From positions 1-64,000 of the forward strand of contig NZ_MTQO01000042.1 of assembly GCF_001984155.1 (NCBI RefSeq): a stretch of 64,000 nucleotides of DNA, given 5' to 3'. Position 1 is the stretch's first letter; every line of letters starts with the position of its first letter. The notes under the pieces are model-generated. The model saw only the letters and a program-made list of their open reading frames with translations, did no database searches and was not told the DNA's origin. Source of the DNA: Actinosynnema sp. ALI-1.44. GTDB taxonomy: Bacteria; Actinomycetota; Actinomycetes; Mycobacteriales; Pseudonocardiaceae. A program made the translations under genes and the position numbers. Shown here one piece after another: positions 1,552 through 57,135 of this stretch.

Positions 1552-4500
1552 TCACACGGACTCCACATCGGAGTCCTCCCGCACGTTCACAGCGTAGTCG
1601 AACTGGGCCTTGGCCAACTCCTCGCTGATGCCGAAGTGCACGACAAGGGCAGCCGGACTGCACGGTTCGCCACTGTCCAGTGCCGCACGCACGTACGCCA
1701 GCACATGGGGCATCACCGCGACTTCGACTGGGGTGAGCGCTGCCATTTCCGCCGTGAGCACCTCGGTTTCGGCTGTACCCCTGCTGACGTCGAACCGCGC
1801 GACGAGGTCATCGACCGAGCACCTGTCGCCACGCCGGAGGACCTCCGACAGTTCGGTCTGCACGGCGTTCATGATCGCCAGTCCCGCCAATACGGGCTCA
1901 AGGAAGTGGTTGTCCTCCGTCATGCCGTACCGCCGAGCCAGGGCCGCCCTGGGATAGCGCTCGCCGCGCGCCGCCGCTTCAAGCACATCGGCCTCGGCAG
2001 CAGCGACAATCGCGGACACGGCCTCCCTGGTTTCGTTGTCGTCGAAGCCACCTTCGTCCGGAAAATACCTCTCCTCGACGCCGCGGACGGAATACGGGCT
2101 GCGCAGATCGGCCGCGCTGCGCGCGTCCCGCATGGCAGCGGTGCGCTTCAAGTCCACAGCTCGCTCGAACGTCACGGTGAACATCTCAGTCAACTCCCGT
2201 GTGCCGGGTGGTCGTTTGGCGTCCGCCGCGTCAGCCAGGTACTCGAACACCGCAGCTTCGATCTGCTCAACCGCCCGTGTGCCCGGTACGCCGTAGTCCG
2301 CCGCCAGTTCCTCGACCGGGTACAGCTCGAATCGCTCCGCCCGCGCGCGGACATCGGCCCGGATGACAGCGTCGAGATGGCGGTTCACCGTTTCGGGATC
2401 GACACCGTGACGCTGAGCGAATGTCTGGACGTCCCGCGGTTCGTCCGGGTCCTTCGCGGCGACGAACGCGGCTTCGACCACCACTCGCTCGGCCGTCTCC
2501 CGATCGATGCCGTACTCGCGTGCGACGTTGTCGACACTGAGCGGCTTGTCCTGTGTCAGCACGTCCTCGCGGGCGGTGGCGACGATCTGATCGGCCGCCC
2601 ATCGAACGGCGAGGTGGTACCGGTCACCCAGTTCCTTTGCCGTGTACGGTTCACCGCGATCGGCCGCCGCACGCACATCAGCCTTGGCTGCGGCGTTGAC
2701 GACGTCCATACCTCGCTGGCGCGTCAGCCCGCGTCTACCCGCCACGCTCGCCACGTCGGCGGCTGTGTACAGCAATGTGGGGATCGACTCGGACTTCGTG
2801 CCTTCGTGGCGCAGGTGGTTGACGACCGCGGCTTCCACCTGGACGACGACCCACTCCGGCGTCCTGCTGTAGGTCCTGGCGAGCGTTTCGGACGTGATAC
2901 CGAGGGACATTCCCGTCGGCCGCCCCATCCGTATCCGCGCTGCCGCGTCGACCACGATGTCGGCCTCTGCCTCGCTGAGCCCAGTCCGCCTGGCAATGAC
3001 CGCGACGGGCGTGGCCAGGTCGATGAGCCCCTTCTCCATGGCCGAGACCACGAGGTGCGCGACCTGGAAGACCGCCCGTTCACGGCTGAGACCACGCTCG
3101 ATCAGTCCATCGACGGTGCCCCAGCCCTGCCGCAGCGCATCGACGTCGATTCCTTCGTGGGGCGTGGATTCCAGACTTCCCGCGTGGGTGATCGAATCGT
3201 GCGCGGCCCGCGCGTGAGCCACACCCGCGGCGCGGATCTGGGCCTCGGCCTCCGCGACTCCGATGTGGTGCTCGTCGGCGAGATCCACGGCATCAGGGGT
3301 CTCGCCACGGTCTTGCGCCTCACGCGCGTGTACGAACGCAGCGTCCGGACCTGTCCGGTACTCGACAGCCTCCCTGGTGATGCCGTACCGCTGAGCCACT
3401 TCGTCAGCGGTGAACAGCCCGCTCGCCATGGCGGCACGCACCTGAACACCGATCTGCTCGAACGCCCACCGCCGGTTCTTCTTGAACTTCGTGGCCAGCT
3501 CGCCCGGGGTGCGCACACCGCCCGGCGTTCGCAGCTCGTCGATCGCGGCCGACCTGATCTCGTGCTCGGCCTCCACGAGACTTATCCCGAACATCCTGGC
3601 GATGTCGTCCGCGGTGAACGGCGCGCCCTGGTCGACAACCAGGCGCACAGCGTCTCGCGCGGCAGCGCGGACCGCGCTGCGAGCCGCTTCGGGGCTGATC
3701 CCGTACGTCTTGGCCAGTTCCTCGTCTGTGGGGCGTGGTTTGTGCGTGAGTCCGATCTGGTAGACGAAGGCCTTGGCGGCCGCGACAATCTGATCGCCCG
3801 CTTTCGCACGGCTGATCCCGTACATGCCCGCCAGCACCTTCGTCGACAGGGGCTGCCCCCTGCCTGCGGACTTGAAAGCGTCGGAGAACGCGTATCGCTT
3901 CAACTGGTGTTCGATGACAAGCGCGTTGGCGATCTGCAGTTGCGCCCACCGGAGGTTCATACCGTACTTCGCAGCCAACACCGCCGCGTCATACCGCCTG
4001 CCACGCCCCGCGGCCTCGACCACATCAGCATGCGCCGCGGCACTGATTTGGTCGAAAGCCCACCCAAGACTCTTGTTCTTGAACCTCGCCACCAAACCCT
4101 GCGCAGTCCGCGGCCGCCCAACCGCCGCCTTCTCACGCACCCACGCCCTCGCCCGCACCTCAGTCTCACCAGCGACACCGGGAACCATCTCCGACAGGGG
4201 TGCGAAAGCAGGGGAGATCGCCGGGTCCTTCAGCGGCCCCATCCAGTGCGGCTCCTCGGTGATCACGTCGTACGCCCACTGGACATCCATGCCGTACTCG
4301 GCGGCGAGCTCACCGGCGGTGATGGAACCACCACCCGCCACGACCTCGCGCACGTCCGCGATCGCGGCGACACGCACCAGCCGCTGCACCTCAGCCTGGT
4401 CGATCGAGTACTTCTCCGCCAGCATCTCCTGAACGAACGGCTGACGGGCGGCCGCGGCCACACGCGCGTCCAGGACCACCGCGGCGGACAAGCCACCGCT

Positions 4501-7500
4501 GACCCTGGCGGCCAGTCCGGCCCGCCGCTCCGGCGGAACACCACCCATGCGGATCGCGGCGATCGCCGCGACGACGACCAGTTCCCGGAACCGCCTGTCG
4601 CCCGATTCCTCGAACCAGCCCCGCAAGGCGCGGATGGTCTCGTCCAGATCGGCTTGCTCCGCCGTTCGCAGCCGCTCGGCTGCCGCGCGAATCGTCACAT
4701 CCCGTGCCCACTCACGGTTCCTGTCGTGGTCACGGGCCAGCTTCGCGACGGGGTAAGGCCGCCCGCCCGCCATGGCCTCGACGACCTGCGCCAGAGCCGA
4801 CGTATCCCCGGCGGACGACCGCGAGCCGCCCACGACACTGTCCTCACCGGACTGTTCGCGGCGACTCACCCGCTTGGCCGACGGCCCGCCCGAAACAGTG
4901 CCGGGTCGCTTCCGGTCGCCTGCGGCAAGCAGGTGTGCCCCCAACGGCAAGGTGCCAGTCAGCTTCGCCGTACCAGTCCTGCGGAAGTTCACGAACCCCA
5001 CGACACCGTCCGGACCAACCCGGGGAATCCGCTCGTCCTGCGGATCCCCGAACACCACACGCCCACCAACCGACTTGACAACGACACCATGCAACAAATT
5101 GCCCGAACCAGGCAGGAACACCGCTCCATAAGTGTTCTCGTCCTGACCGGCCATATGATCGACCACCTGGCTGAACGAAGCAGCCACCGCGTCCCCGCGC
5201 GACGACTCCGCCAAGTGACCGATCGCCATCGGGCCACCCTTGCCGCCCCGCACCATCTCGCCCTCGACGATGGCCAACTCAGCCACGATCAACAACAGCA
5301 GGCAGTTCTCGGTGCTGCCCGGCCGCCCAGCCAGAAATGCCTCCCTGTTCCCACCCACGAACAACGGGAACTCATCCCGGAACGCCGCCTCGTTCTCCTC
5401 ATCGCTCGAGAAAGACGCAGCCGTGACCACCAGGTCAGCGGACAGCGACGGCCACGAGCCGACGTGCGTCGCGTCCTGCTCGGCCTGCTGGGCCCGCGCG
5501 TCCCGCAGGATCCGCTGAGTCTGGTTCACAGCCTGGTAATCGGCCTCATCCATGACGGAATCGTCGTCGCTGTCCACATCGACGTCCCGGGTGTCCTCGA
5601 TGTACGAGTCGGCCGTCACCGGGTCGACGCCGAACACACGGACGAGTTCGTCAGCGGTGAGCGGGTCGCCAGTCTCGTGGGCGGCCCGCGCCGCCGCACG
5701 GGCCGCCATCTGGATCTCCTCGGCCAGCGGGTAGGACAGGTCACCCGTGTCCGGGTTCCTCACCGCCGGAACGTTGTACCGCGTGTGAAGTGCCTCCGGG
5801 GTGGGCGGCGGAGCACCGGTTTCCAACGCCGCGAGCACATCGGCCCGTGCGAGAGCTCGGACCAGGTTCGTCGCCTCAGCGTCTTCGCCGGGGAAGTAGC
5901 GGACCTCGATCTGACCCAGCGAGTGCGGCTTGCCGCGATCCGCCGCCGCGCGCACGTCGAGACGAGCGGCAAGGCGTTTCACGGCCATGGCCTCGGCTTG
6001 TTCGAAGCCGAACTTCGCCCGCAGCACGGCCACCGGCTCCGGGGTCTCCGCCCGCGCCGCATCGTGTTGCTGTTCGACCGCGGCGCCCACGATCTGGTTG
6101 TACGCCCGGCCGAGGTCCACCCCGTACTTCGCTGCCAATTGCTCCTTGGTGTACGGCGCGTTCCGATCTGCCGCTGCGCGCACATCGGTTCGCATGATGG
6201 CGTCGACGTGACGATCCACTGCCTCAACGCTGATGCCATATCGCTGGGCGTGCGGTCCGATGACAAGCGGCTCCCCGGGCGCGCGAGCCGCGTCAGCGTC
6301 TGCCGACACGGCCGAGACAATCGCCTGCTCGGCCGTCGCGTGGCTGATGCCGTACTTGCGAGCAGCTTCGGCGACGGTCAACGGTGTGCCACCGTTGACC
6401 GCCGCACGCGCCTCAGCGCTTACGACGACGATGATCCGGTCTGTCGCCCACCGAGTGACAAGGAAGTACCTCGTGGACAGTTCGCCGGTGGTGTACGGCT
6501 GCGCGCGCTTCGCAGCCGCACGCACGTCCGCCTCGGCAGCGGCGTTGACCACGTCCACCAACTGGTCGGCGGGCAGCCAGGTTTCCCCCGCCTGCGTGCC
6601 CAGGTAGGCCACCGTCGTCGGCTCCAGATTTGCCCATGGCGTGAGCAAGCCGCGGCGTACGCCGCTGATCGCCTGGGCTTCGATCCGTCCGCGTGCCCAC
6701 TCCGTTGTCCTGCCGTAGTTCCGGGCGGTCTCTTCGACCAACCCGGCAGCGTCGATCCAGTTCCTCCGGCCGCGAGCCAGAGCCTCCGTGACATCGAACT
6801 CCGCGATGAGGTCGACGAGGGCGTCGGCCTCCGCCTCGCTGATCCCGAACCTGCTGACGAAGTCCGCGGCGCGCGGCCAGTCGGCTTCGTCGTTGCCCGT
6901 GAAGTACTCCAGTTCGGCGTGCGCCATGTGGAGTATCGCCCGTTCGCGACTGAGGCCGAACTTCTTCATCAGGGCACCGACGTCGCGTCCGCCGCGGGTG
7001 ATCTCTTCGCCAATGGCGATCCACGAGGCGGGTCCGTAGATCAACTTTTCCCGCGCGACGCGCATGTACGCCACGTCAGCCTCACCGATCTGAGCCGTGG
7101 CCTCCGCGACCGTGATGCCGAAGATACGGGCGAGATCCGCGGCGAGAGGTGTCTCGCCGCGGTCGAGCGCCTCGCGAGCGTGTACGAACGCCGCGGCCGG
7201 GCCTGTCAGATACTCGACTGCCTCGCGGCTGATCCCGTACAGCTCGGCCAGTTCATCCTTGGTGGACACACCACTGCGCGCATCCGCACGCACCAGAACA
7301 CCGATCGGTCCGAACGCCCACCGACGGCTCGCGCCGAACGTTTTGGCCAGTGTGTCCGGGGTGTGGGGACCGCCGGTGGTGCGGGCGACCACGACCGCGA
7401 GCGCGGCGAACTCGTGCTCGGCCTCCACGATGCTGATCCTGACGCTCTCGGCGATGTGACGGAAGATGATCCGCTTGCCCTTGCCGAGGTCGTAGTCCAT

Positions 7501-10500
7501 AAGGTCACGTGCGGCGTCCCGCTTGGCCTCCCTGGCCGATTCGAGACTGATCCCGTATCGCTCGCGGAGATCCTTGTCCGTGTACGGCGGCTCCTTGTCC
7601 ACTGCCGTGGCGTACACATCGTGTTTGGCGGCTTGGACGAGCTGCCCGGCCGCCTTGTCGCGGCTGATCCCGCGCCGGTTCGCCAGTTGCTCCGGTGAGT
7701 AGGGCCGATCACCGGCCGCGGCCCTGGCGTCCTGCCGGGCAAGCTCCATCAACTTCTGTTCGATGGCAACCGCGTTGGCGATCTGCCGTTGCGCCCACCG
7801 GAGGTTCATACCGTACTTCGCAGCCAACACCGCCGCGTCATACCGCCTGCCACGCCCCGCGGCCTCGACCACATCAGCATGCGCCGCGGCACTGATTTGG
7901 TCGAAAGCCCACCCAAGACTCTTGTTCTTGAACCTCGCCACCAAATCCTGCGCAGTCCGCGGCCGCCCAACCGCCGCCTTCTCACGCACCCACGCCCTCG
8001 CCCGCACTTCGGTCTCACCAGCGACACCGGGAACCATGTCGTCCAGTGCGGTGAACGCGTAGGCGATCCCCGGCTCGTTCAGCGGCCCCGACCAGTGCGG
8101 TTCCTCGGCGACCACCCCATGCGCCCACCGGCGGCTGTGACCGAACCGCCCGGCCAACACGTCGATCGAGAGGGTCCCTCCGCTTTCACGCACGTCCGCG
8201 AGCGCAGCGACACGGATCAGCCACTTCGCCACCTCCAGGTCGATCAGCGGGTTCGCCTGATCATCGGGATGCTGGTACCTCGCGACCAGCGACTCCGGAG
8301 TGAGCGGCCGGTCCGTCCCCGCTGCCGCCCGCACGTCCAATACCGCCGCGGCGTGCAGCTTGTTCGTCGAACCGTGGAACCTGGCCTCCACTTCCGCACG
8401 GCTGAGGGGCTGCCCGGTAGCGGCTACCCGGCGGATCTCGGCGACTTCCGCGGCGGTGATCAGACCCGCGGCGGTTTTCGTGTCGATGTCCTGTTTTCTG
8501 AGCAGCCGGTACAGCGATCGGCTGGTGTCGTCGGACTCGCGTCGCGTGGCTGTCCGCAACAGCTCAGTTGCAGCGCGGATCACCACGTCCCTTGCCCACT
8601 CGCCATTCATGCCGAAGTCACGGGCCAGTTGCTTGATCGGGTAGTCCTGGCCGTCGGCCATGGCCTTGCGCACAACGTCCACAGCGGCGGCGTCGATCCG
8701 GTCCGAAGCCCATGCGCGGTCCTTGTGGTACTTGCCCGCAAGTGCCTGCACACCAATCGGCTGTGACTTGCGCGCCGCACGGCGGATCTCCGTCTGCACG
8801 TCCTCATCGACCGGCCCGGCGGCTGCCCGCCGCCGGTTCGAGCTGCTGGAACTGACCTGACTGGACCGCTCGGTCGACTGCCCGCCCAACAACCGGCGGA
8901 CGAAGCTGGTTTGTTTGCCGCCGCCGGCCGCGAGGAGGTGCGATCCCAACGGTGAAGTGCCGGACAACGGCGCCGTACCAGTCCTGCGGAAGTTCACGAA
9001 CCCCACGACATCGTCCGGACCAACCCGCGGAATCCGCTCGTCCTGCGGATCCCCGAACACCACACGCCCGCCGACCGACTTGACGACAACACCGTGCAAA
9101 TGACCATTCGAACCAGGCAGGAACACCGCTCCATAAGAGTTCTCGTCCTGACCGGCCATGTGATGGACCACTTGGCCGTAAGACGCCGCCACCGCGTCTC
9201 CACGCGACGGCTCCGCCAAGTGACCGATCGCCATCGGGCCACCCTTGCCACCCCGCAACACCAACTGCTGGGACACGGCCAGCTCAGCCCCGACCAACAA
9301 CAGCAGGCAGTTCTCGGTGCTGCCCGGCCGCCCAGCCAGAAATGCCTCCCTGTTCCCACCCACGAACAACGGGAACTCATCCCGGAACGCCGCCTCGTTC
9401 TCCTCATCGCTCGAGAAAGACGCAGCCGTGACCACCAGATCAGCGGACACCGACGGCCCTGGACCGGCGTCCTGCTGCGCAACGACAGTCGCGTTGTTGG
9501 CCGGCGGCGGCACGAACTCATCCAGGTCGGGCGCGATGTCGCTGTCCGGACCGTCGGCGGTGTCGTCGACAAGGGAGTTGGCCAGCCACGGCGAGATGCC
9601 GGTCGACTCGGCGAGCTGGTCACCGGTGAGCGGATCGCCGGCCTCGTGGGCCGCGCGTGCGGCTTCGCGAGCAGCTTCGAGGACCTCGTCCTTCGCCTCG
9701 TCCAGGTTCAGGTTGAATCGCTTGGCGAGTTGCCGTGGAGTGGTGGTGTGTGTGCCGAGCTCGACAGCCGCACGCGCATCGGCCCGCGCGGCGGCCTTGA
9801 TCAATGTGTGCGCCACCCCGGCCGGGAACCGGAACTCTCCGTCCGTCGACCGGCTGGCCTGCAGGCCGTACTTCGCGGTCAGCGCTTCCGTTGTGTAACG
9901 CTCACCACGCCCCGCCGCTTCACGCACATCGTCCCGCACGGTGTCGTAGATCGCGGCCACTGCCTCACGGAGGTCGTGGTTGTTGACGGCGGCGACGTCG
10001 TCGTCGTCCCTGCGGAAGTGCCGTTCGTAGACCTTGAATACCGTGTGCGGGCTGCCGCGATCCGCTGCCGCACGAACGTCGGCACGCGCAGCGGAACGCT
10101 TCAGCTGCCAGGCCTCGCCAAGCTGGAGAGCGAACATCGCCTCCAGCTCATGCGCTGTGTACGGATGCTGGGATCCTGCCGAGTCGGTGATGTACTGCTG
10201 CGCGGCAGCCAGAACCTGCTTGACGGCACGCGCAAGCGGTACCCCGTGCTTCTCGGCGAAGGCCTCCTTCGTGTACGGCTCAAAGTGTTCCGCCGCCTGG
10301 CGCACGTCAGCCCGCATGATGGCATCGATGTGGTGGTCCACCAGTTCGACGCTGATGCCGTACCGGCGGGCATGCGTCTCGATGTCGAGCAGTTCACCGG
10401 GGACTCGGGCCGCCCGCGCGTCGACCAACGCGGTCGAGACCACTGCCATCTCGGCCAGCTTGGGCTTGACGTTGTACTTCCGGGCGATCTCGTCGACCGT

Positions 10501-13500
10501 GTACGGCGCGCGCGTGGCGCTGTTGGCCGCCGCGTGCACATCGGCGCGGATGACGGTGGCGATTCGCTCGGCGCCCCACCGCTTGCCGAAGAAGTACCTG
10601 GCGGACAGTTCCTCGGCGGTGTACGGCTCCCCGCGTTCCGCGGCCGCGAACACCTCGGCTTCGGCTGCTTCGTTGATCAGTTCGATCCCTCGCTGCCGGG
10701 GTATCCCGTAGTGAGAGGCCAGCTCGGCCAGATACGAGTCGGCAGGGGTTATCGGCTCGCTTCTGTCCTTGTTGCTGTACGTGTGTTCGTTCGGAGAGGC
10801 CGCTTGGCGCAACAGTGCGACGTATGCGGCGTCGATGCGTTCGCGTGCCCACTCCGGTGTCCTGTTGTGCCGCTTGGCGAACTCCTCGGCGGATACGCGT
10901 GGGCCCCAGCCCCTCTCCGTGAGCCGCAGGTAGTCGACCACCCCGGCTGTGTTGACCAGCACCTCTGCTTCCGCCCTGCTGATCCCGAACCGCTGGACGT
11001 AAGCCGCGGGCAGGCGAAGTGTGGTGTCGCCGCTGATGAGGTGCGCGATGAGGAAAATCGCGCGTTCCCGGCTGCCGCCGAGTTTCTCGGTCAGGACATC
11101 GACGTCGAGGTCGCCGCCTTGGATCTGCTCACCATTGCTCGTCAGCGAGCTTTCCTCGACGAGGATCGCTTCGCTCGCTGCGAGCGCGTGCACGTACTGC
11201 GCGTCTTCGCGCGCTCCGACCGGATCTGTCCGATGCTCGACGGCCTCGCGGCTGATTCCGTACCACGCGGCCAGCTCGTCGTTGGTGAACAGACCGGTTC
11301 GCGCGTCTTCGCACACCAGAACACCGATCTGCTGGAACGCCCACCGCCTGCTCCTGCCGAACAGCTTGGCCAACGCGTGCGGAGTACGTGGACCGCCCGC
11401 CTTACGCGCCTCGGCGAGAGCCGTGTCCCTGACCGCGTGCTCGGCCTCCACACGGCTTATCCCGAAGTCTGTGACGATTTCGGTGATGCTCAGCAGTTCG
11501 CCGTTGTCGGCGTGGCGGCGCACGACATCACGCACGGCTGCCAGTTTGGCTTGCCGCGCCGCCACGGGGTTCATCCCGAACTGGCGAGCGAGTTCCTTGC
11601 CGGAGTACCGGCCAAGGTGGGTACTCGCTCGTTCGTGCACGGCCGCGACGGCGGCGGCGAGGATCAGTTGGTTCGCCCTGGCGACACTGATCCCATGCCT
11701 GTCCGACAGTTCCCTCGCCGAGTACGGCCGACCGTCGAGCCCGGCGTCGAGTGCGTCGGACAAGGCACGAGCTGTCAGCTGTTCTTCGATGGCAACCGCG
11801 TGGGCGATCTGGCTGTGTGCCCATCGCGTGTCCATGCCGTACTTCGCAGCCAACGCCGCCGCGTCGTACCGCTCGCCGCGCCCCGCGGCTTCCATCACAT
11901 CGACGTGCGCGACGGCCTGGATCTGGTCGTAGGCCCAAGCAAGGCGCTGTTCGAACTCCTTCGCCAGTTTCTCCGGCGACAGCGGCCGCGGGGTGCCCGC
12001 CGCCGCGCGCACCAGGGCCCGTGCCCGCGACTCGGTCGCCCCAGCAGGATCGGGAACCACATTCCCCACTGCCGCATGAGCCCTCGAGACGACCGGGTCC
12101 TTCAGCGGTCCGGACCAGCCTGGCTCCTCGTTGATCACCCGGTACGCCACCTGAGGTGTCAGGTTGTACCGGTCAGCCAAGTCGGCAGCGTTGACGGTTC
12201 CGCCACCTCGGACAACCTCACGCACGTGGACGAGCGCGGCGAGACGAACCATCCGCTCCACGTGTGCCGGGTCGATGTCGTACTCGCGGCCCACCACGTC
12301 CGGGATGAGCGGCCGACCGGCCGCCACGGCCTCGCGCACGTCCTGGAGCACCGCGGTGTCCACCTTGGACGCGTCGTCGAACCTGATGGACAGTTCCCGT
12401 TGTCCGTAGGGATGTCCCGTGGCCGCAGCGGCACGGATCGCGGCGACTTCGGCGGCGACCACAAGCCCCGCGGCGGTTTCGCTGTCAGCGCCCGAACTCG
12501 TGAACCAGTGGAGCAGCGATTCGGCTGTGTCCGCTGAATCGTCCCGGTCGGCGGCCTGCAACCGCTCGGCCGCCACGCGGATGACCAAGTCACGCGCCCA
12601 CTCGCCGTGCTTCCCGTGGTCGGCTGCCAGTTTCCCGAGGGGATACGACCGACCGGTCGCCATGGCTTGGAGCACGTTGTCCCGTGCGGTGGCGTCGGTC
12701 CGGGCAGGGGGGTGACCGGCTCTCCCTCGCTGAGTCGGCTTGCCGAGGACGCGTCGCAAACCAGTGCCCATGCGGTTCGCGTCCGGCGCCCCGACAAGAA
12801 GATCCCAGTCCAGCAGCGGACCGCCCAGCCTGCCCGTACCAGTCCTCGCCATCTCGACGTAACCGACGACACCCTTCGGATCGACATCGGCGATCTTCTC
12901 GCTCTGCAGGTCCGAGAACACGATGGCGCCGTCGGGGCCGTGCTCGACGAGCACACCGTGCACCATGGTCTTGGAGACGTGCAGGAACGCCACTCCCCAG
13001 GCGCCTGGTGACTGGTTGCGGGTGTGCGCGACGATCTGCTCGTAAGTCGCCTTGACAGGATCTCGGCCCAGCACCTCTCTGAACCGGCCAACGGTCAACG
13101 GTTCGTCACCATCGACACCCACGATGATGCCCTCGGAGTCAGCCAAGTAGGAAGGATGCGGAAGGCTGCCGGGTTCGGCGCTCGGCTGGCTGCCCGAGGC
13201 CTCACGACGATACGGCGGCGGGACGTCCAAGTCCGCGTACGACGGTGGTGGCACCTCGGACTCATCAGGTTCATCGGACTGTTGTGCGGTCGCTGTCAGC
13301 GCGGCAGCGACTCTGCCGTCCTGTCGAGTGAGTGTCCGAGGCACTGCACCGCCACGCCCAGTCCGAGTGCGCCGGGGGTTGCCCTCCGGCGGTACCCCGA
13401 CGAGAAGTTTCGGGTTCAACGCGGGAGCTCGCAACGGCGTCGAACCCAGCCTCGGCATGTTCATGTAGCCGACGACGTCCTCCGGACGCGGATGCAGCAT

Positions 13501-28500: not shown

Positions 28501-31500
28501 CCGCGCCTCGCGCATGTCGTCGGGCGTCTGCGCAAGGCGCAGCGTGGGCAGCAGACGGTACAGCGCGACGTGATCCAGCCACGGCGCGTCCCGTTCGTCC
28601 GCCTCGATCAGTGCCGGGTCCAGCCCGACCTGCTCGGCGGTCCGCTGTCGCCGCATCCACCGCGCCGCAGCGGCGTCGTCGCCGGGCAGGTCGGCGAACG
28701 TCTGGCCGTGGTCGGTCAGATGTCTGAAGACCCGCGCGATCGACTCGCCTTGCACCATCCCGAGTCGGTCTCGCTGCCGTTGCTCCCACTTCGGGTACTG
28801 CGCCACAACCGCGTCCGCCAGGCCTTGCGTCCCGGACTTGACTGTCACGTACTGCGAGAGCAGGAACGCGCGGATATCCCATGGATCCGTCTTGAGCCGC
28901 AGGGCCACGTCGAGCATCTGCGGTGGGGTCAGCGGCTGGGTCCGCATGCTGCCCGCGTCGGCCGCCCGGGCGAGGTTGCGCGGGATCCGGTTGAGCGCAA
29001 GGCTCAGCTCGATGGCCGCCCGCTCGTGCTCACGCCCGACACTCTCCACCAACACGTCGAAGTCGGACTGGTCGAACCAGTTCTTCTCCCGCAGCGTCTC
29101 GAATGCCGCCATCTGCTCCCACGACGCCTGCGACGCTGACGAGGACGACCGGCCGGACTCGGTGGTCTGGCCGCTCCACTCCCTGGCCGCGCGCAGCAGA
29201 CCGGCCCGGTCACCCAGCTCACGCGAGGACGGCATCCGCTCGCCGAGGAACCGGAACACCCTGGTGTAGTCCCAGTCCGGTCCCAGAGCCACCGCCAGGT
29301 CGGCGACCAGCTGCTCGGTCGCGTCACGGGTCCTGCGTTCCGCGCGCAGGCTCCTGACCAATTTCTCGGCCGCCTCACGGCTGCGGCGCCCGGATCTCCT
29401 CTCGTCGCGGTCGAGCGACGCCACGAGCTTGTCGACCGCCTCGCGGCTCTCCCGGTCGAGCCCCACCCGCGCCTCGCCCTGGCTGAGGTGCTCGATCAGC
29501 TCGTCGATCGCCTGGCGGCTGCTGGTGTCGAGCCCATCGTTCGGGCCGAGGCGGTTGAGCCGCCTCGCCACCTTCTCCACCGCCTCGCGGCTCTCGCGAT
29601 CGAGCCCCGACCACGTCCCGCCGTCCTTGAGGCTGCGGATCAGGCTCTTGAACGGCAACAGCCCGCGCGGGTCGGCGTGCAGCCGCGCCGTCAGCTTGAA
29701 GAACTTGTCGGCGGGGACACCGGCCTGCCTGGCGATGTCCGGGATCTCGTTCGGCAGTCTGCCCAACCGGACGGCCAGGTCCCGCACCGTGCGGAAGTTG
29801 TCCCCGTCGACCTCGACATCCACATCGGACAGCAGCTTCACCGCGCTGCCGTAGTCGAACCACGACGTCCGTCCGGCGTCGCGCACCACAGTGGCTGGTT
29901 CGATGCCGGGGATCTGCTTCGCCCACCAGCCGTTCATCCACTGGTCCGCCTCACGCGGCCCCAGTTCGTGCGCCGCATGGCTGAACAACCACATGACCCA
30001 CCGCGGGCGCACGACTTCGTCCTCGTGCACCTGGAAATGAGTCCTGGCATGGTCGCGCAGCTGCTTGGCGAGATCCCGCGGACTGATCTTCTCCTGGCCG
30101 TAGTCCGCCGAGTGCAGGAGACCCGACAGCCAGTCCAGGTGACGCGGATCGACCTGCAACTCGTTGGCGAGGTCGGCCAAGTACCGCGGGCTGACTCCGA
30201 GTTGGACGGCCAAACCCGGCACCTCCGCCGGAACCCTGCCGTGGCGCTCGCTCATCCGCAGCACGTCGTCCACCGGCACACCCGCACGGACCAGCTTCTC
30301 GACATCACCGGGCACGAACCAGGGTGACCTCGCCAGCTCGGCAACCGTTCGCTTGCTGATCTCCAGCCGCTTCGACCAGCGCTCGACCATGTTCGAGGAC
30401 TGGTACGGCAGGTCCGTCCAACTGACGGCGGCCAGCCGGTTCGGCTCGAGCGGAGCGTTCGTCGTTTCCGCGTAGCTGGGCAGCCGGTCGTTGCCCTGTG
30501 CCGTGAGCAGTTGCCTGACCACCGTGTGAGTTTCGGCGTCGCCGTGCAGGATGAACCGGCCTGGCCGGTTGTCATGCCATTCCTGCAACTGCCTGATGGT
30601 CGGGTTGGCGCTGCTCACCTGCGATCCGGGTCGGTAGGGGCGGACCTGGCTGCTCAGTGCTCGCGCAGCGCGGTACTCGCGCAACAGCCCCGCGTACTCG
30701 ATCGCGCTGTCGCTGACCTTGAAGTGCTGCGTCTCCGTGAGGAACCGCTCGGCCAGCGACCGGAAATGCGCACTGCCGCGCACCAGTTTCGCCAGCGCCA
30801 GCACCGGGAAACCCAACCGGGTGCTCAACTGCACGTAACGATCGCGGTCGATGCCCAGCTGGGCCAGTACCATTTCGAGCTCGCCGACGATCCGCCGCGC
30901 CTCTCCGCGTGCGTCACCGGTGACGAAGCCCGGCGGCGCCGCGATCTGCTGGAAGTCGTCGCGCAACGCCACCAACGACTCCGGCCGGTCCACTCGCAGC
31001 AGCCTGGCCACCTCGTGCACGACGTGACCGTTGGGCAGTCCGATGTCGTGCGCGAAATGCTGCAGGTAACGAGGGTTCTGCCACATGGCGGTGGCAACGG
31101 ACCGTGCGACCCGATCCGCGTTCGCGGGATCGCGCATGTGGGCGACGCGCTCACTCAGACGGCCGTCGGCGTTCATCCGTGCGATGACCGCCGTCGCGTA
31201 GTCCGCGTCGCCCGCTTCCCCGTCGTAGTGTTCGACCCCCGCCGTCGCACGACCGATTTCCTCACGCAGCAGCGCCAACGTCTCCGGCCGCTCGATCCGC
31301 AACTGCGCGGCCACCTCACGCAGCATGTCGCTGTCCGGCAGCCCCAGATCCCGAGCCAGCGCGTTGAGGTACAGGTCGGTGTCCCGGGAGCGCGCGACCA
31401 CATCCCGCACCCGGCCGAAGTGCTCGCGTGCGAAGTCGTTCGGCAGGTCGTGCACCAACTCCAGCGGCACACCGGCTCGGTTCAAAGCGCTGAACGCAGG

Positions 31501-34500
31501 CAGATCCCGTGAGCTCCAACCCATGCGGTCGGCGAAACCGGTCAGATAACCGAGGTCGTGGTTCGTCCGTACCCCGTACGGGTGCAGGTTCTCCCGCAGC
31601 CTGTCGGCGAGATCCGTTCCGGTCAACTCGGTGGCGTCGTTGTCGGCCTGACGCAGGACCTCCACCAGGTGCGGGCCCAGCACACGCACCTGGCGCGGGT
31701 GACCGAACACCCCTGGCATCGCCCGCACGAGCCGATACACCGGCTTCGGGTCGGACAACCCTATGTCCCGCGCCGCGTCGATGAACGCCGCAGGTGTTAC
31801 TCCCAGCGCCACCGACAGCCGCACCAGACGCCGCGGCTCCTCCCCGAGGCCTTCCGCCATGCTGCGCACGACCGCCGGATGCGACTGCCCGTCCGGCACA
31901 AGCTTGGTGAACTGCGCGTACCGTTCCGTGCTGACCCCGAGCGACCGCGCGTCGTGCTCCAGCGCCCGCTCTTGCCTGCTTTTCGACGACGAAGCCGGAT
32001 GCCGCCGCGGGTCCGGCCGCGGGTCCCGCGACTTGCCCGTACCCCACCCGGTGGGGTCCGAACTGCCGTTGCCGGTCAGGTCGGGCCTGCTGCCCACCGG
32101 CGTGTACACCGGCGTGAGGACCTCATCTGACGCGTGCGGCGAGAACCACACCTCGACGGGCGAATCCGGCCAGAGCTCACTGCCCTCCTGGTCGTCGTCG
32201 CCCAGCAGTTTCCCGTCGCGTTCGACGACGGCGAAGAAGTGCCCCCTCCCACCGCCGAGGTCCGCGTACACAAGCCCACGACGGCCTTTCCCGCCGTTGA
32301 GGTACGCCTGAACGTCCTGGTAGCCGCCAGCCTGCTTGGCCATCAGCGGCAGGCCGGTCTTCGCCACCTGGTCGCGGTGCACCGGACCACTCGGTCCGGC
32401 CACGAACTCGCTCGCCCGGCCGGGATGCGCGGCCGCATTCAGCGTCCGGATGGCGCGCGGCAGGCAGTTCGTGTCGTAACCGGCGGTGAACCTGGGCTGG
32501 TTGACACCCTGCACGCGTGCGACGTAGTCGTCGGCAGTCGAACCACTGAGCTGATCACTCGTCGGCTGGTGCGGGCGGAAGCTGAGCTTGCCGTTCTCGA
32601 CGACCTGGTCGACGTGCACGTCATCGGTGACGGGATCGCCGAACGGTGTCAACGTGACCGTCTTGCCGTCCGGTGTGTGCACCACCAGGTTGGCACCGAT
32701 GTGGGCGGCGACGAACTTCCCGACCGTGTGCACGGCGTTGGTCGCTTCGCTGCTGCCCGCGTCCGTGCGGTCGCGTTGCACGAACGCGTTGAACAGGTCG
32801 CCGTCGTGCGAGGGGTTCGTCGCGATGTGCACGCCGATGCCGTGCGGGTCCCTGCGGTCGTTGGCGTTGCCCTTCTTGTCCACAGTGGGCAGAGCGGAGC
32901 GCATCGCGGTGTCGATGACGTCCTGCCGCAACCGGTTCGCGTCCGTCCCGTCACCGATGGCGTCGGCGACACCGTGGTAGAGGCTGCCGACTGCCACGTC
33001 GGTGCCCGCCGTGCCGAGAACCTCGTTCTTGACGTAACCGAGGATCCGGTTCACGACGATGTCTTGACGCGCGGTAGCCATGTTGTGCGCGGCGACCACC
33101 TTGTGCTGATCGGGCACACCCGCGGTGACATCGGCGACACCAGTCGGGGCGGACAACGCCATGCTCAGGTTGTTGTGTTCCTGATCGCCCAGCCAATGTC
33201 CGTGCTCGTCGGACGCGGGCCGCCAGTTCGCCGCCGTGGCGTCGGACGGCCGGAACGGCTCACGGTCCACGTGGTCCAGAGCGGGGAACTCCGCACGGTA
33301 GGCCGAGGGCTTGGTGCCCTCCTTGTCGGCCCTCAGCCCGTAGAACCGGTTGGGCACCGTGTTGAGCGCGACATGCGACTGGAGAACGGTCTTTGTCTTC
33401 TTGAACTCCTTGGCCAGGCGAGCCAGGTCCGTTTCGACCGCGGCACCCACGTAGTCGGCGTCGAACGACTTGCCCCGGATCGGGTGGGCGAGGTTCTCCG
33501 CGTTGGTCCGCAGCGATTCCGTACGCGATTCCGCGAAAGCGAACAACTGCTCCGCGTTGGTGACATTGGCGGCGACGTCAACGCGTGCCATGGGGACCAG
33601 ATCGTCGTGCGCGTCCGTGGCATCTGAGGTGTCACCGCCACGTGCGTACTCACGAGCGGCCATTTCCTTCAGCCGGTCACCGGCCAGGTGGAACATGTCA
33701 CCGCGACGCGGATCCGGATGGCCGTTGGCCACGTCCAACGCGTGGATCCGGACCTGGGCGGCCAACTGGGCACCGGCATTGTCCAACAGCTCGTCGAGGA
33801 TGGTGTTCGAGCTGACGTCGTTGCCGTCGAGGAAGTCCTCCAACGACTCGTTGAGCTCCCCGGCCAGTTCCTGGCGTTGCTCCGGTGACAGGTCATTGAT
33901 GAACTCGGTGACCGTCGGCTGATGGGTGGCGGCCAACTCCTTGGCGTTCCAGAAGGCGATCGCGTCCACGAGGTTCGCGGCTTCACCGCTGGTCGCGCTG
34001 AACCAGATTCCGCCGACTTCCCTGAAGTCCTTCTTCCTGGTGTCCTTGTTGCCGATCTTGTTGTCGTCGTTGTTGTCGGCGAGCACAGGGAGCGCGTCGA
34101 AGAAGAGGTTCGGTTCCGGCGTGTACGGCAGCAGCGGGTGCGTCGACGCCAACCGGTCCCTGACGCGCATGTCCTCCGCGATCTTGCCGGTGAGCTCCGG
34201 ACTGCCGTCGACAGTCCGGTAGCCGCCCGCGAACAGCAACGGCCGCGTCGGCCGACCCTCAGGCGCCTCGGGCTTGAACTTGTTCTCGAAGTGGTTGAAG
34301 ACGTGCGCACCGGACGGAACCGCGCGTCCCCCGATGTCGAAGTCCTGGACGGAGATGTACGGGTGCATGCCCTGTCCGACGAAGGCCTCGGACAGCGTTC
34401 GGGTCGGCACGCTCCCGAGCGTGTCGTTGCGCACCGCCCCGAACGGGAAACCGCCCTTGCCGTCGAAGGTGAGACCCACCACGGCCACCGGGTGTTCGAT

Positions 34501-37500
34501 ACCGCCGATGAGCGTCTTCGCCTTGGCCAGCGCGGTGTCGATCTGGTCCGCGCTCTTCTTGCCGTCCTTCGCGTTGATCCCGAACACGAACCCGACCCGG
34601 CCGTCGAACCCGCGAGCCCCGCGCATGATCGACTCGACCACAGCGGGAATCTGCTCGACCTTGCCGTGCGGCAGGATCGCGTTCACCACGAACGCCATCG
34701 GCCGGTTGTCGTCCACCAGTTCCGTCAGCGTCTCGATGTAGTTGTCCGCCGTCACCGACGTCGCCGGGCCTGCGGTGAACTCGTCGAACGCGCTGTTGGT
34801 GTGGCCGAAGTCGAGCCGGAGCTTCTTCAGCTGGGTGCTCGGCGGGGTGTCGTCGATCGGATCGTCGACGCGCCGCCGTTTCCTGGACGACGCCTCCGGA
34901 TCCGTGCCGGGCGGTGCGCTGGGCGGCGGTACCTCGGCTTCCGGCGGCGAGGGGTAGTTGTCGGCAGCCGACAAGTCGGTGTCGGAGGTGCTCCAGAACT
35001 CCTTGCTCCGGTTCTCGATGAGCCACAGGTTGCGGGGCTTGAACGTCATGTCGTGCTGCTCGAGGCCCTCCGTCATCGGGCCGTTGTCCGGCACGACACG
35101 GCCTTTGCCGTCCTGGTGCTGGAAGACGGGCCTGACGTCGTCCTTGGACAGGTACTCGTCGAACATGCCCTGGAAGTGGCCTGCCTCGTGGCCCAACTGC
35201 CGCACGGTGGCGTCCACCGGCCAATGCAGCTGGTTCACCCGAGTGCCCGGTTCGCCGACCTCGACCACGCCGTGCGCCTCGGCCCGGTTGGTCACGAACT
35301 CGACGGACACGTGGAACTGGCGGCCGTTGGCCATCCGGTAGCCGTGGTTGTACAGCTCGTCGACGCCGGTCTTCGCGCGCTCCCGCAGCGCCTGGATCTG
35401 CTCGGGCGTGGCATTGCCCTGTTCGAGGTACAGCTTCGTGGTGTGGTGCTCCACCGGCACCTTCACCCGCACGCCTGGCTGCACCTCGTGCTCCACCTCG
35501 AACCGGCGGACGTCGTAACCGATCGGTCCTCGCCACGACGGCGTGCCAGCCGTGTTCAGTGCGCCCTGCTCACCACGCACGTGCCCCGAGATCGGCTGCG
35601 TCTTCGCGGCCTCTTCGATCACCGTGGACGGAGCCGCGTCCTTCTTCGCGTCGAACCAGGACGCACTCGTCGCGGTGCTGTGCCGCCACGACTGGTCGTT
35701 CAGGATCACCTCGGACGGGTGACTGGCAGGCCGATCGAGGGTCCAGTCGACGTACACGTCGGCGCCATCACCGCGACCCGGCTCGGCCGTCGCGGCGATG
35801 CCGTGCTTGAAGAGCTCGTCGGCGACCACATGCGCGTCGGCACCCGTCACCATCACGACCGGTGGCAGGTAGCCGTCCTCACGGCGCGTCTCCATCGAGC
35901 TGGTGAGCACCTCGACCAACGAGTCCATCTTGGCCCGCTGATCCACGTCCGACGTGAAGTCGAAACGCGCCTCCGGTGCCGGGGACTCGAGCCGGGTCGA
36001 CCCGACAGGTGGTGTGTTGCCGGACGGCGGGCTCCCGGCAGGCGGTGCCGAGACCGAAGACGGCCCAGCGGGCTGCGCGGGCAGAGGCGGCGGCACAGGC
36101 GGGGGTGCCGAAACCGAGGTGTTCCCCGACAGCACAGCCCCAGACGGCGGGGCGGCGGGCGGTGAGGCGGCGGGCGGTGGCACTGAAACCGACGTGTTCC
36201 CCGACAGCACAGCCCCAGACGGCGGCGACGAACCCACAGGCGACGTCGACCCGGAGGGCGGCGCAGCAGCAGGCGGAGCGGACACAGGAGGCGGCGCCGA
36301 GACAGGCGCGACGGGAGGCGGAGCAGCAGGAGGAGGCGGAGCAGCAATGGGAGGCAACGCCGAGGCAGGCCCAGCCGCGGGAGGTGGCGCGGCAGCGGGC
36401 GGTGAACCGATCGGCGAAACCGATCCAGGCGGCGGAGCCGAACCCTGAGGAGACCCCACAGGCGGCACGGCAGCAGGAGGCGGCGCCGAAACCGGTGTCA
36501 CCGCAGGGGGTGAGGCCGCAGGCGGTGTCGGCACCTGAGGTGTGGACCCCACGGGAGGCTGCGAAACCGGGGGCGGTGAACCGACGGGCGTCGATTGGAC
36601 AGGTGGTACCGGAGCAGGTGAGGACACTGGCGGCTGACCGGCCACCGGAGGCGGCGAGCCCACAGGTGGCTGCCCTACCGGAGGCTGTGCGGCCGGAGGC
36701 TGTGCGGCCGGAGGCTGTGCGGCCGGAGGCTGTGCGGGCGGTGATCCAGCCGGTGGTTGGACGGGCGGCGGTTGCTGGCCGTTCCACACCTGCTTGGGTG
36801 GTGCTTCGCCACGCGGTGAGTACGGCGGCGGTGCCTCGACAGGCTGGTACGGAGGTGGTGGGGCCTCTTGCCGATCCGGTGTGTCGCCGCCGACGGGCCC
36901 CTTCGAACCTGGCACCTTCGACTCGGTGACGAGCGGCGGCACCTTCGAATCCGGCCCCGGCCCCGGCTGCGCCTTCGAATCCGGTCCGGGCTGCACCTTC
37001 GAGTCCGGCTTACCACCGGTGATCCTCGTGTCCGGCCCGCCCTGCACCTTCGACTCGCCACCGGGGACCTTCGAGTCCGTCTGGCCGGGCGTCTCCGGGC
37101 GCGGCATGTTCGGTCCGGGGCCACCGTGCTTGTTCATCATCCACGGCGGTGGCGCGCCGTGCTTGTCGATGTACCGGTTCACCGCGTCGATCTGGACTTT
37201 GCGCTCGATCGAGCTCGTCGCGGAGCTGGACACCCACGTCTGGAGCATGTCGAGGTTGGCAAGGCCCTCGGCACCGTAGAACATGCCGATGCCGATCACT
37301 TCGGCGGGCATCTCCGTGAGCGCGTCGAGTTGTCCCGTCCCGATCGGCTTCTTCACGAAGTTGTCGAGATCCTTGTTCAACTTGATCAGCCTGTACGCCG
37401 GACCGTGCAGGAGCCTGGTCAGCCCGCCGACGACGGCCTCGGCGAAGATGGCCTTCACGTCCCAGCCGTCCTTGCGTCTGCCGTTCAGCGTGGTGATCCC

Positions 37501-38104: not shown

Positions 38105-39079
38105 CTACTTGTCGTAGCGGTAGTAACTCGGTTTCTCGTTGCCCCGGATTTCCATGAAGACCTGTTCGTTGTACGGCCTGTCCGTCGCTTCCGGATTCAC
38201 CGTGACGAGGAAGAGCCGTTGTTTGCCGTCCACCGGGTACGGCGACGACACGTTCGGGTCGTTCGGGTCCTGGAGCGTCAGGCTGTCGGGGCCCAACGGG
38301 GTGATGCTGGAGTAACGGTCGATGCCGATCCACACCACACCGCCCGGCAGCTCGGTCGCGCTGACGATGCGCTGTCCCGGCTCCAAGGGACGACCACCGA
38401 CCATGGGCTGCTCGTTCTCGCGCAGCGCGTGCAGGCCCAGCGCGGAAATCATCTCCGGTGACCGGAACTGCAGGCTCTCCCTGTCGATTCCGCGCAACGG
38501 GTAGGACCCGGGAAATGGCCGCTGTGACTTCACGAAGTTCTTGTTCGGTTCCACGCCGAGGTTCGGTTTCTGCGGTGGTATGCCCTTTTTGGACGGTACC
38601 GCGCCGCCGCCGTCCCGCGCCACGGCTATCTTGTTCGACACCGCCTTGTTGAACGGTGTCTTCTGTCCGTCGGGCGCGTCCCCGTCGCTGCGCATCGTCA
38701 TCCCGACAGGCGGCTTGCCGTCCACATAGTGTTTCTTGGTGCTGTCCGCCGGGCCGTTCTCCGCCGCGGTCCTGAACCTGTGCGCCGCTATCTCGGCATC
38801 GTCGCGGGCGGCGCCGTAGATCCGCCCGTTCTCGTTGAGGCCGTCGCCGACGTAGCCGATCCGCTTGGCCTGGCTGTCGACGCCGTCGACGAAGATCTTC
38901 TGGCCGTCCTGGAAGTTCGTGAAGAACTCCCTGCCCACGTCGTCGTCACCGAAGCTCGCCTGGTACCGGTAGCCGAGGTCGCCCGACGTGCGCTTGAGCG
39001 AGGTCAGCCGGTCCTTCACGTAGTTGTAGCCCTCGCCTGTGCGCGACAGGCTCTCCGGGTCGACCCAGAACTGGTTCAT
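38105..39079 (-). CDS. Probable type VII substrate/partner with EspC-like N-terminus
   Basis: This 324-residue protein has an ATG at 39079 and GGAGGA just upstream. Residues 1-100 are helical ('LSRTGEGYNYVKDRL', 'DDDVGREFFTNFQDG') and resemble the small EspC/WXG-like family exported by ESX systems. The middle is a Pro/Lys-rich linker. Residues 190-324 form a strand-rich domain ('GGVVWIGIDRYSSI', 'QRLFLVTVNPEA') of unknown function. There is no signal peptide or membrane segment. It lies 12 bp after the YbaB-type gene and 46 bp before the giant gene, so it is probably co-expressed and may act as co-substrate or chaperone of the giant protein. Classification of the N-terminus is tentative. Confidence 0.5.
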   Translation of the reverse strand: MNQFWVDPESLSRTGEGYNYVKDRLTSLKRTSGDLGYRYQASFGDDDVGREFFTNFQDGQKIFVDGVDSQAKRIGYVGDGLNENGRIYGAARDDAEIAAHRFRTAAENGPADSTKKHYVDGKPPVGMTMRSDGDAPDGQKTPFNKAVSNKIAVARDGGGAVPSKKGIPPQKPNLGVEPNKNFVKSQRPFPGSYPLRGIDRESLQFRSPEMISALGLHALRENEQPMVGGRPLEPGQRIVSATELPGGVVWIGIDRYSSITPLGPDSLTLQDPNDPNVSSPYPVDGKQRLFLVTVNPEATDRPYNEQVFMEIRGNEKPSYYRYDK

Positions 39080-45439: not shown

Positions 45440-45443
45440 CAGT

Positions 45444-56937: not shown

Positions 56938-57135
56938 TAGGGAACTCCTCCGGTTGTTGGCGGACCCGCGTGCATGGCCGTACGACCAACCCCCTGGGTG
57001 CGGGCGATCACCAATCTGACAGCGGAGCAGTCCATCGCCCAGTCCAACCGCCTTCCTCTGCCCGAACGGATCTCGCGGTTGCCCGTTCTGACACGTCACG
57101 CTTCCCCACGAGCAACCCGATGCCTGAACAGGCGT

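What the first reader, a model, noticed from the sequence alone, without database searches (positions are those of the whole stretch)
1552..38058. A single 12,168-residue reading frame in a type VII secretion operon
The frame is open for 36.5 kb without a stop, in the same direction as eccB/C/D, and carries a WXG/CpnT-type N-terminus, enzymatic motifs and long repeat regions. A protein this size would be among the largest bacterial proteins and poses an obvious problem for export through an ESX channel. The combination of modules (metzincin motif, J domain, eight papain-like modules, three HTH-like arrays) is not one I recognise as a described effector class.
Basis: partly seen in the sequence, partly recalled or inferred. 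Interest (0 to 1): 0.88.

Follow-up and report, generated by a model that had tools for sequence, protein, structure and literature searches.

The report
Giant self-processing type VII secretion effector
An unnamed, probably actinobacterial genome carries one unbroken gene for a 12,168-residue protein that looks like a many-part weapon made for export by a type VII secretion system, and relatives carry similar single genes of up to about 21,000 residues around one shared core of unknown fold.

Summary
In detail: 1552-38058, minus strand, is one 12,168-codon frame without internal stop. A 12,487-aa ortholog with the same gene order lies in a single-contig genome, so mis-assembly is very unlikely. 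The named parts are there: WXG-like N-terminus (Pfam hit below cut-off), metzincin-type motif, J domain, eight papain-like modules (Tox-PL1/PF15644; one lacks its Cys half) and three helix-turn-helix-like arrays (57 units).

Added here: (1) a ~1,190-residue core without Pfam or PDB match occurs in 15 giant frames of 13 genomes (13 complete, 5,486-21,167 aa); EccC lies within 28 kb in 13 of 13 loci with wide flanks. (2) The next gene encodes Imm35 fused to a papain-like domain whose catalytic Cys position aligns with Ala; Imm35 lies beside 6 of 7 giants with papain-like modules and 0 of 8 without. (3) Only 12 Cys (about 107 expected), 7 in papain-like modules.

Best reading: an ESX-exported, self-processing multi-effector weapon. 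Giant actinobacterial multi-toxin proteins were reported in 2012 (longest 13,652 aa): a new variant of a known kind. Expression, export and cleavage are untested, and no structure could be predicted.

The parts
1552..38058 (-). giant gene, 12,168 aa
   Evidence: ortholog of 12,487 aa in G002
37189..38058 (-). aa 1-290: WXG100_2/CpnT-type export domain with one hydrophobic segment (aa 109-137)
   Evidence: Pfam PF25547 E 6e-4, 20.2 bits, below its cut-off of 27; shared N-terminal pattern and hydrophobic segment in 14 of 14 giants with intact N-terminus
35989..37071 (-). aa 330-690: Pro-rich linker
   Evidence: sequence; 3.6% KR, 3.0% DE
34939..35961 (-). aa 700-1040: metzincin-like metallopeptidase module, HEAGHFQGMFDEY at aa 957
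   Evidence: aligned in 8 giants; relative in G007 hits Peptidase_M6 E 1.2e-3, below cut-off
32101..32544 (-). Tox-PL1 module 1 (aa 1839-1986), NC-H-DxQ complete
24739..31971 (-). aa 2030-4440: internally repeated region without Pfam match
   Evidence: self-BLAST; no convincing family
24169..24621 (-). Tox-PL1 module 2 (aa 4480-4630), C-H-D kept, Q lost
19879..24072 (-). span of a ~200-aa module of unknown kind present four times (23374-24072, 22483-23118, 20659-21306, 19879-20556)
   Evidence: no PDB match better than E 0.38
22084..22281 (-). J domain (aa 5260-5325) with HPD
   Evidence: Pfam DnaJ E 6.4e-22; same motif in two G002 giants and Saccharopolyspora L059
21394..21852 (-). Tox-PL1 module 3 (aa 5403-5555), complete
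19279..19731 (-). Tox-PL1 module 4 (aa 6110-6260), His and Asp lost
14401..18900 (-). aa 6387-7886: region holding the shared core; profile A1 covers aa 6425-7610; no Pfam or PDB match
13456..13860 (-). Tox-PL1 module 5 (aa 8067-8201), complete
12850..13158 (-). Tox-PL1 module 6 (aa 8301-8403), NC half missing
9559..12741 (-). HTH-like array 1 (21 units)
8989..9393 (-). Tox-PL1 module 7 (aa 9556-9690), complete
5584..8826 (-). HTH-like array 2 (19 units)
4984..5388 (-). Tox-PL1 module 8 (aa 10891-11025), complete
1555..4806 (-). HTH-like array 3 (17 units)
211..1503 (-). Imm35 + PL1-like gene (430 aa), 48 bp after the giant; catalytic Cys position aligns with Ala (NARGC)
   Evidence: Pfam Imm35 1.2e-28, Gln_amidase 5.2e-24
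38105..39079 (-). 324-aa gene 46 bp upstream; WXG-like N-terminus by eye (W to F), candidate export partner
   Evidence: no Pfam match
39612..42887 (-). EccA/SpoVK-type AAA ATPase with N-terminal beta-helix
   Evidence: Pfam; NCBIfam EccA 296 bits, below its cut-off
42884..45493 (-). gene X (start uncertain), conserved cluster member, C-terminal XopAI-like domain
45444..46790 (-). EccB
   Evidence: Pfam 1.5e-82
46800..48203 (-). EccD
   Evidence: Pfam 1e-73
48200..52177 (-). EccC
   Evidence: Pfam FtsK_SpoIIIE 1.2e-86
52209..55304 (-). 1031-aa WXG-like, repeat-bearing protein
   Evidence: WXG100 E 5e-5, below cut-off; DNA repeats
56614..57099 (-). WXG100 protein
   Evidence: Pfam 5e-14

Best explanation
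The gene encodes a multi-effector antagonism protein exported by the ESX (type VII) machine beside it. Shown by sequence: one frame, a WXG-like N-terminal domain, a shared core, many peptidase-like modules and an adjacent Imm35 gene. Inferred: the WXG-like N-terminus, paired with the WXG-like 324-aa protein encoded just upstream, docks on EccC. The poorly charged Pro-rich stretch and near-absence of cysteine help threading. The shared core is the common body (delivery, anchoring or assembly) and the flanking modules are exchangeable cargo. The papain-like modules with an intact triad, and the metzincin module, cut the chain after export (they may also act on the target) and so free the pieces between them, including the helical arrays. 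The Imm35-PL1 protein keeps the papain-like modules inactive in the producer and protects kin. It works like a MARTX toxin, but through type VII secretion.
For: T7SS cluster: an EccC homolog within 28 kb of the giant in 13 of 13 core-bearing loci with wide flanks. Common N-terminus plus hydrophobic segment in 14 of 14 intact giants. WXG-like or u324-like gene directly upstream in 9 of 14 (by eye, with u324 homologs; not seen in G022, G019, G007, G110, G103). Imm35 within 3 kb of 6 of 7 giants with PL1 and near 0 of 8 without (Fisher p 0.0014). In five of the genomes without PL1 in the giant (G022, G103, G110, G060, G233), Imm35 lies elsewhere, each time within 4 kb of another PF15644 frame. 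Six of eight PL1 modules keep C-H-D, five the full NC-H-DxQ. Cys 12 of 12,168 against about 107 expected from 8 neighbours, 7 of them in NC motifs. Cargo differs around one core: PLD in the last tenth of the 21,167-aa relative, SecA-like and Gln_deamidase_2 domains in the first 4,327 aa of the 16,760-aa one, Gln_deamidase_2 and Gln_amidase in the last 1,799 aa of the 11,795-aa one. G002 lacks 705 aa, window aa 5543-6248, whose ends fall in PL1 modules 3 and 4. Most parts of the giant evolve faster (dN/dS 0.25-0.76) than Imm35 (0.11), EccC (0.08), EccD (0.18) and EccA (0.09). Imm35 is reported as specifically associated with Tox-PL1, and internal Tox-PL1 is proposed as an auto-processing peptidase, in PMC3482391 (passages).
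Against: No expression, secretion or cleavage data. A type VII channel is not known (recalled) to pass a chain of this size. No known toxin domain was found in the window protein besides PL1 and the metzincin motif; the Pfam scan was made in nine pieces, so a domain across a cut could be missed. The WXG100_2 hit is below its curated cut-off in the window protein, and a YxxxD/E motif is in the first 250 residues of only 5 of 14 intact giants. One giant with PL1 (C29, 4,299 aa, no core) has no Imm35 nearby. In two of the six Imm35 neighbours (G124, G309, a close pair) the PL1 module shows no NC motif, and in G002's second giant PL1 rests on my own HMM alone. The Cys-to-Ala reading of the immunity protein depends on the alignment; a Cys lies three residues on (NAR[GN]C). 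EccB (0.40) and u324 (0.44) evolve about as fast as parts of the giant.
Confidence: 0.62

Rival explanations
1. Same weapon, but the papain-like modules are toxins in their own right (glutamine deamidases or peptidases acting inside the target), not processing enzymes; the giant acts uncut or is cut by other means.
For: Pfam names the family glutamine deamidase; Tox-PL1 is the terminal toxin in a subset of proteins and Imm35 is listed as its immunity protein (PMC3482391, passages). An immunity gene is expected for a toxin.
Against: The modules sit between other modules and precede each array rather than forming the C-terminal tip; two of eight have lost triad residues, as if kept for structure or recombination.
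Confidence: 0.3
2. A surface-attached structural or adhesive giant protein, like other giant bacterial surface proteins, with enzymatic domains as ornaments.
For: Long repeats; huge bacterial proteins have been grouped as surface proteins or NRPS/PKS (PMC11573180, passages); adhesion is proposed for Omnitrophota giants (PMC10066038, passages).
Against: No Ig-like, cadherin or other adhesion family in Pfam scans of the whole chain in nine pieces; peptidase modules with an adjacent immunity gene; a type VII cluster beside it.
Confidence: 0.1
3. The arrays are DNA-binding effectors: 57 helix-turn-helix-like units read DNA in the target cell, as TAL effectors do with other repeats.
For: Some units score as HTH families in Pfam (best single unit HTH_psq E 1.1e-4); array order is kept in copies, with collinear 41-54% identity over about 940-1,060 aa.
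Against: Arrays are net acidic (-22, -14, -30); the variable positions of the third helix are not basic in the 19 gapless units profiled; no convincing PDB hit (best E 0.29); each of 9 Pfam families matched only 1 of 19 units.
Confidence: 0.08
4. Artefact: mis-assembled repeats, or many separately translated peptides rather than one chain.
For: Internal repeats of up to 54% identity over long stretches; no expression data; the window's contig starts only 210 bases beyond the Imm35 gene (one search places the window at C38:1).
Against: Ortholog of 12,487 aa in a single-contig genome with the same gene order; dN/dS below 1 in 30 of 30 blocks; 15 core-bearing giant frames in 13 genomes.
Confidence: 0.03

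Closest known systems
Giant multi-toxin polymorphic toxins of actinobacteria (SACTE_5178, 13,652 aa; PMC3482391)
   Same: Giant chain, several peptidase/toxin domains in one protein.
   Different: The published group combines lethal-factor-like metallopeptidase, caspase, ART and MCF1-SHE domains (passage); here PL1 x8, a metzincin motif, a J domain, helical arrays and the shared core. Whether SACTE_5178 has the core was not tested. A single-sequence search of 199 genomes of the genus of G355 found none, but it also missed G355, a partial match of the profile search, so that negative says little.
Tox-PL1 / PF15644 with Imm35 / PF15567
   Same: NC-H-DxQ signature, Imm35 neighbour, Imm35 fused to a papain-like domain.
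   Different: Eight copies in one chain; in 4 of 4 neighbouring immunity proteins examined the NC reads NA.
CpnT and other WXG-type T7SS toxins
   Same: Helical WXG-like N-terminal export domain, small WXG-like gene beside it.
   Different: CpnT has two domains, the N-terminal one needed for secretion (abstract and outline only, PMC8092274); this is a chain of many modules.
MARTX toxins (recalled)
   Same: Works like: one chain, central effector modules, built-in cysteine protease for release.
   Different: No RTX or CPD family in the Pfam scans; type VII, not type I, neighbours.
Omnitrophota giant ORFs (39,678 aa; PMC10066038)
   Same: Very large single frames.
   Different: The 39,678-aa example has 42 predicted transmembrane helices, and most giant ORFs there have few annotated domains (passages); the window protein shows four TM-like stretches by a simple hydropathy scan, one of them in the export domain.

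Membership tests
Giant actinobacterial multi-toxin polymorphic toxin | several toxin/peptidase domains in one very long chain | tested here: met
   8 PL1 modules and a metzincin motif in 12,168 aa
Giant actinobacterial multi-toxin polymorphic toxin | export by T7SS via WXG-type N-terminus | tested here: inconclusive
   T7SS cluster present; WXG100_2 below cut-off in the window protein but 44.1 bits, over it, in the G103 relative with the same N-terminal pattern; export itself not testable
Giant actinobacterial multi-toxin polymorphic toxin | immunity gene next to the toxin gene | tested here: met
   Imm35 gene 48 bp downstream
Giant actinobacterial multi-toxin polymorphic toxin | variable toxin at the C-terminal tip (classical polymorphic toxins) | tested here: inconclusive
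   C-terminus is helical array 3 with HTH-type hits and no toxin family; a toxin of unknown kind cannot be excluded
Tox-PL1 (PF15644) | NC-H-DxQ | tested here: met
   complete in 5 of 8 modules, C-H-D in 6 of 8; curated cut-off reached by two modules in the whole-genome search
Tox-PL1 (PF15644) | papain-like fold and activity | not testable with these tools
   structure prediction switched off
Metzincin | HExxHxxGxxH/D (motif recalled) | tested here: met
   HEAGHFQGMFD at aa 957, region aligned in 8 giants; no PDB match
Metzincin | Met-turn and fold | not tested
   no structure available
J-domain protein | DnaJ domain with HPD | tested here: met
MARTX | RTX repeats and CPD peptidase | tested here: not met
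   no such family in Pfam scans of the whole chain
DNA-binding TAL-like repeat protein | basic, DNA-contacting repeat surface | tested here: not met
   arrays net acidic; variable positions not basic
ESX/T7SSa cluster | EccB, EccC, EccD, EccA-type and WXG100 genes | tested here: met

The most novel reading that the evidence does not exclude
A Gram-positive counterpart of MARTX exists: a family of ESX-exported polyproteins of up to at least 21,167 residues. Each is built on one undescribed ~1,190-residue core that delivers interchangeable cargo, is cut into pieces by built-in papain-like and zinc peptidases, and is held in check by an immunity protein that carries a naturally dead copy of the same peptidase. 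Cargo is swapped by recombination between the papain-like modules.
Probability: 0.3. Interest if true: 0.86.

Novelty: new variant of a known kind. Interest (0 to 1): 0.62.

Why it matters
It makes a concrete open question testable: how, and whether, an ESX channel exports a chain of about 1.3 MDa (or nearly twice that in a same-genus relative). The shared core gives a handle: no Pfam match in any of 12 diverse members and no PDB match of their profile, yet present at full length in 15 giant frames. The link of PL1 modules with an Imm35 gene carrying a papain-like domain that seems to have Ala for the catalytic Cys suggests an inhibitor design worth a structure.

Tried and rejected
Internal repeats in the core (a four-hairpin, pore-like reading suggested by eye): profile-profile self-comparison gave at most 8.5% probability and reversed controls of the four named segments were similar; rejected. 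A beta-rich fold of the core: crude propensities do not support it; I call its fold unknown. Matches of the core to Pfam (0 of 12 members), PDB (0) and plasmid records (0). DNA-binding arrays: see rivals. PL1 profile against PDB: best E 0.0072, a CdiA chain, C-terminal half only, suggestive only. Four-fold ~200-aa module: no PDB match better than E 0.38. Metzincin region: no PDB match. Phage families: none for 4 proteins. Promoter and terminator scans around the gene ends: no promoter-like site in either stretch; three terminator-like sites on the plus strand near 38.5-38.7 kb, not interpreted. Tree of the three arrays of window and G002: no clean one-to-one orthology. Pfam on three genes next to other giants (downstream of C47, G110 and G103) and one WXG-like gene upstream of C29: no family.

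Rows dropped before counts: G233 (contig ends inside the gene), L059 (cut flanks) and C29 (no core) are left out of the 13-of-13 EccC count; C29 had no EccC hit in its 40-kb stretch. L059 (flanks cut) and G494 (genome not searched for Imm35) are left out of the Imm35 table. G494 (9,865 aa) is left out of the core count: its match was 47 positions and absent. Shorter frames with partial core matches (G355, G524, G556, G664; 1,717-2,156 aa) are not counted as giants; G618 was not fetched. Of the giants other than the window's, Pfam was run on the whole of G007, the first 4,327 aa of G103 and the last 1,799 aa of G019, and on the core stretch of each member of A1.
Full report
What is there. The frame 1552-38058 lies on the minus strand: ATG at 38058, stop at 1552, 12,168 residues, no internal stop. 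About 270 stops would be expected by composition, and the longest open run in any other frame of the same stretch is 2,048 codons. Third-position GC is high in all 25 blocks. A genome of the same genus holds an ortholog of 12,487 residues in an 11.76-Mb single contig, with the same neighbours in the same order: eccC, eccD, eccB, gene X, eccA-like, the 324-aa gene, the giant, the Imm35 gene. The two giants are 57% identical over 10,883 aligned codons. dN/dS is below 1 in 30 of 30 blocks with data (0.25-0.76; one of 31 blocks had none). Seven neighbours give 0.08-0.44, Imm35 0.11. A mis-assembly or a decayed frame is therefore very unlikely.

Anatomy. Residues 1-290 resemble the WXG100_2 domain (Pfam E 6e-4, below its cut-off); the same pattern, followed by one hydrophobic segment, opens 14 of 14 giants with an intact start, and one of these is over the Pfam cut-off. 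A Pro-rich, nearly uncharged stretch follows. A metzincin-type motif lies at residue 957 in a region that aligns across eight giants; the strict motif is in 7 of 17 giant frames, and the copy in G007 hits Peptidase_M6 weakly. Eight Tox-PL1 modules are spread over the chain: three are found by PF15644 at E<=1e-3, two over its cut-off; the rest rest on self-BLAST and an own HMM seeded with seven of them. Five keep NC-H-DxQ, six keep C-H-D, module 4 has lost His and Asp, module 6 lacks the NC half. A J domain with HPD lies at 5260-5325, and the motif recurs in three other giants. A ~200-residue module of unknown kind occurs four times between residues 4660 and 6060. The last third holds three units of PL1 plus a helical array; the arrays contain 21, 19 and 17 recognisable units, commonest spacing 38 residues, and were copied as whole arrays (collinear 41-54% identity). 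They are net acidic.

The shared core. Of seven other giants first compared, six share a stretch within residues 6387-7886, while the arrays were matched in G002 and, for one short block, in G019 only. The first search, with an overlapping 1,200 residues, hit 5 of 60 genomes, the window's own included; a wider one hit 10 of 298 genomes of the order, own included, so nine others (few candidates per genome were scored, so this is a lower bound). In all, 15 giant frames of 13 genomes carry it at full length; the 13 frames complete at both ends run from 5,486 to 21,167 residues. An EccC homolog is within 28 kb of the giant in 13 of 13 loci with wide flanks. The core has no Pfam match in any of 12 members and no PDB match. 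A profile search of 394 genomes of the class hit 8, own included: G060, and six of one more distant genus with partial matches, in frames of 1,158-2,156 residues and one of 9,927 whose match was 47 positions long.

Immunity. The gene 48 bp downstream encodes Imm35 and a PL1-like domain. In 4 of 4 such proteins, from window, G002 (two) and G019, the NC of the papain-like domain reads NA in the alignment, while the His and the DxQ remain; a Cys three residues on (NAR[GN]C) leaves some doubt. An Imm35 gene is within 3 kb of 6 of 7 giants with PL1 modules and near none of 8 giants without (Fisher p 0.0014). The species are related, so the p value overstates independence. C29 is the exception; in G124 and G309 the PL1 module shows no NC; in G002's second giant PL1 was found by my own HMM only. 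In five genomes whose giant lacks PL1, Imm35 lies elsewhere beside another PF15644 frame. That Imm35 pairs specifically with Tox-PL1 was stated in PMC3482391 (passages).

Cysteine. The chain has 12 Cys against about 107 expected from eight neighbours (P about 2e-31), and seven of the twelve are the NC cysteines. Seventeen giant frames, two of them cut, together hold 116 Cys in 158,831 residues. This fits a chain selected for export, with Cys kept where it is needed; that link is inference.

Cargo exchange. G002 lacks 705 residues (window aa 5543-6248) whose ends lie in PL1 modules 3 and 4, and has insertions of its own near residue 1030 and elsewhere. Relatives carry other cargo: PLD in the last tenth of the 21,167-residue frame, SecA-like ATPase and Gln_deamidase_2 in the first 4,327 residues of the 16,760-residue frame, Gln_deamidase_2 and Gln_amidase near the C-terminus of the 11,795-residue frame. 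The rest of the 21,167-residue frame gave no further Pfam family at E 0.01 apart from the M6 hit.

How it probably works. Export through the neighbouring ESX machine with a WXG-like partner (the 324-aa gene, or small WXG-like genes at other giants) is inferred by analogy with CpnT, whose N-terminal domain is needed for secretion (abstract, PMC8092274). Self-cutting by the PL1 modules and the metallopeptidase follows the proposal of PMC3482391 for internal Tox-PL1 (passage). Delivery by the core, and Hsp70 recruitment by the J domain, are guesses. Against: no expression, secretion or cleavage data, and no terminal toxin domain was recognised.

What is known. PMC3482391 describes giant actinobacterial multi-toxin proteins, longest 13,652 residues (passages). 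Larger bacterial frames exist (39,678 residues, PMC10066038, passage). Hence: a new variant of a known kind.

Noticed in passing
G007:C4:1626031-1689534 (L033-L036): A same-genus genome has one open frame of 21,167 residues in the same kind of T7SS cluster, with core, M6-like metallopeptidase motif and a PLD domain in its last tenth.
   Followed up: partly
G103:C4:6247018-6297300 (L081-L083): A 16,760-residue giant contains SecA DEAD, SecA P-loop and SecA cross-linking domains plus Gln_deamidase_2 and a WXG100_2 N-terminus over the Pfam cut-off: a Sec motor part inside a T7SS giant (first 4,327 aa scanned).
   Followed up: no
window 42884-45493: Gene X, found in 11 of the 13 wide core-bearing loci, has a C-terminal domain related to the type III effector XopAI (PDB 6k94, E 9e-6; NCBIfam below cut-off); by eye the ART glutamate (position recalled) seems replaced.
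   Followed up: partly
window 39612-42887: EccA-type AAA ATPase carries an N-terminal right-handed beta-helix; the usual EccA N-terminal domain is of another kind (recalled).
   Followed up: no
window 53164-54559: The gene of the 1031-aa WXG-like protein contains DNA tandem repeats of 150/300 bp and shorter G+C-rich repeats.
   Followed up: no
G000:C29:47224-60123 (L042, L043): Another giant of 4,299 residues in the same genome: WXG-like N-terminus and one PL1 module, no core, no Imm35 nearby, gene-X homolog directly downstream.
   Followed up: partly
window 23374-24072, 22483-23118, 20659-21306, 19879-20556: A ~200-residue module of unknown kind repeated four times; by eye similar to part of gene X.
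   Followed up: partly
G355, G524, G556, G664 (L093-L096): Partial core-like matches in much shorter proteins (1,717-2,156 aa) of a more distant genus; these could reveal what the core does on its own.
   Followed up: no
G019:C1:6205463-6223033 (L030, L031): A second giant frame of 5,856 residues about 20 kb from the 11,795-residue one, with a similar start.
   Followed up: no
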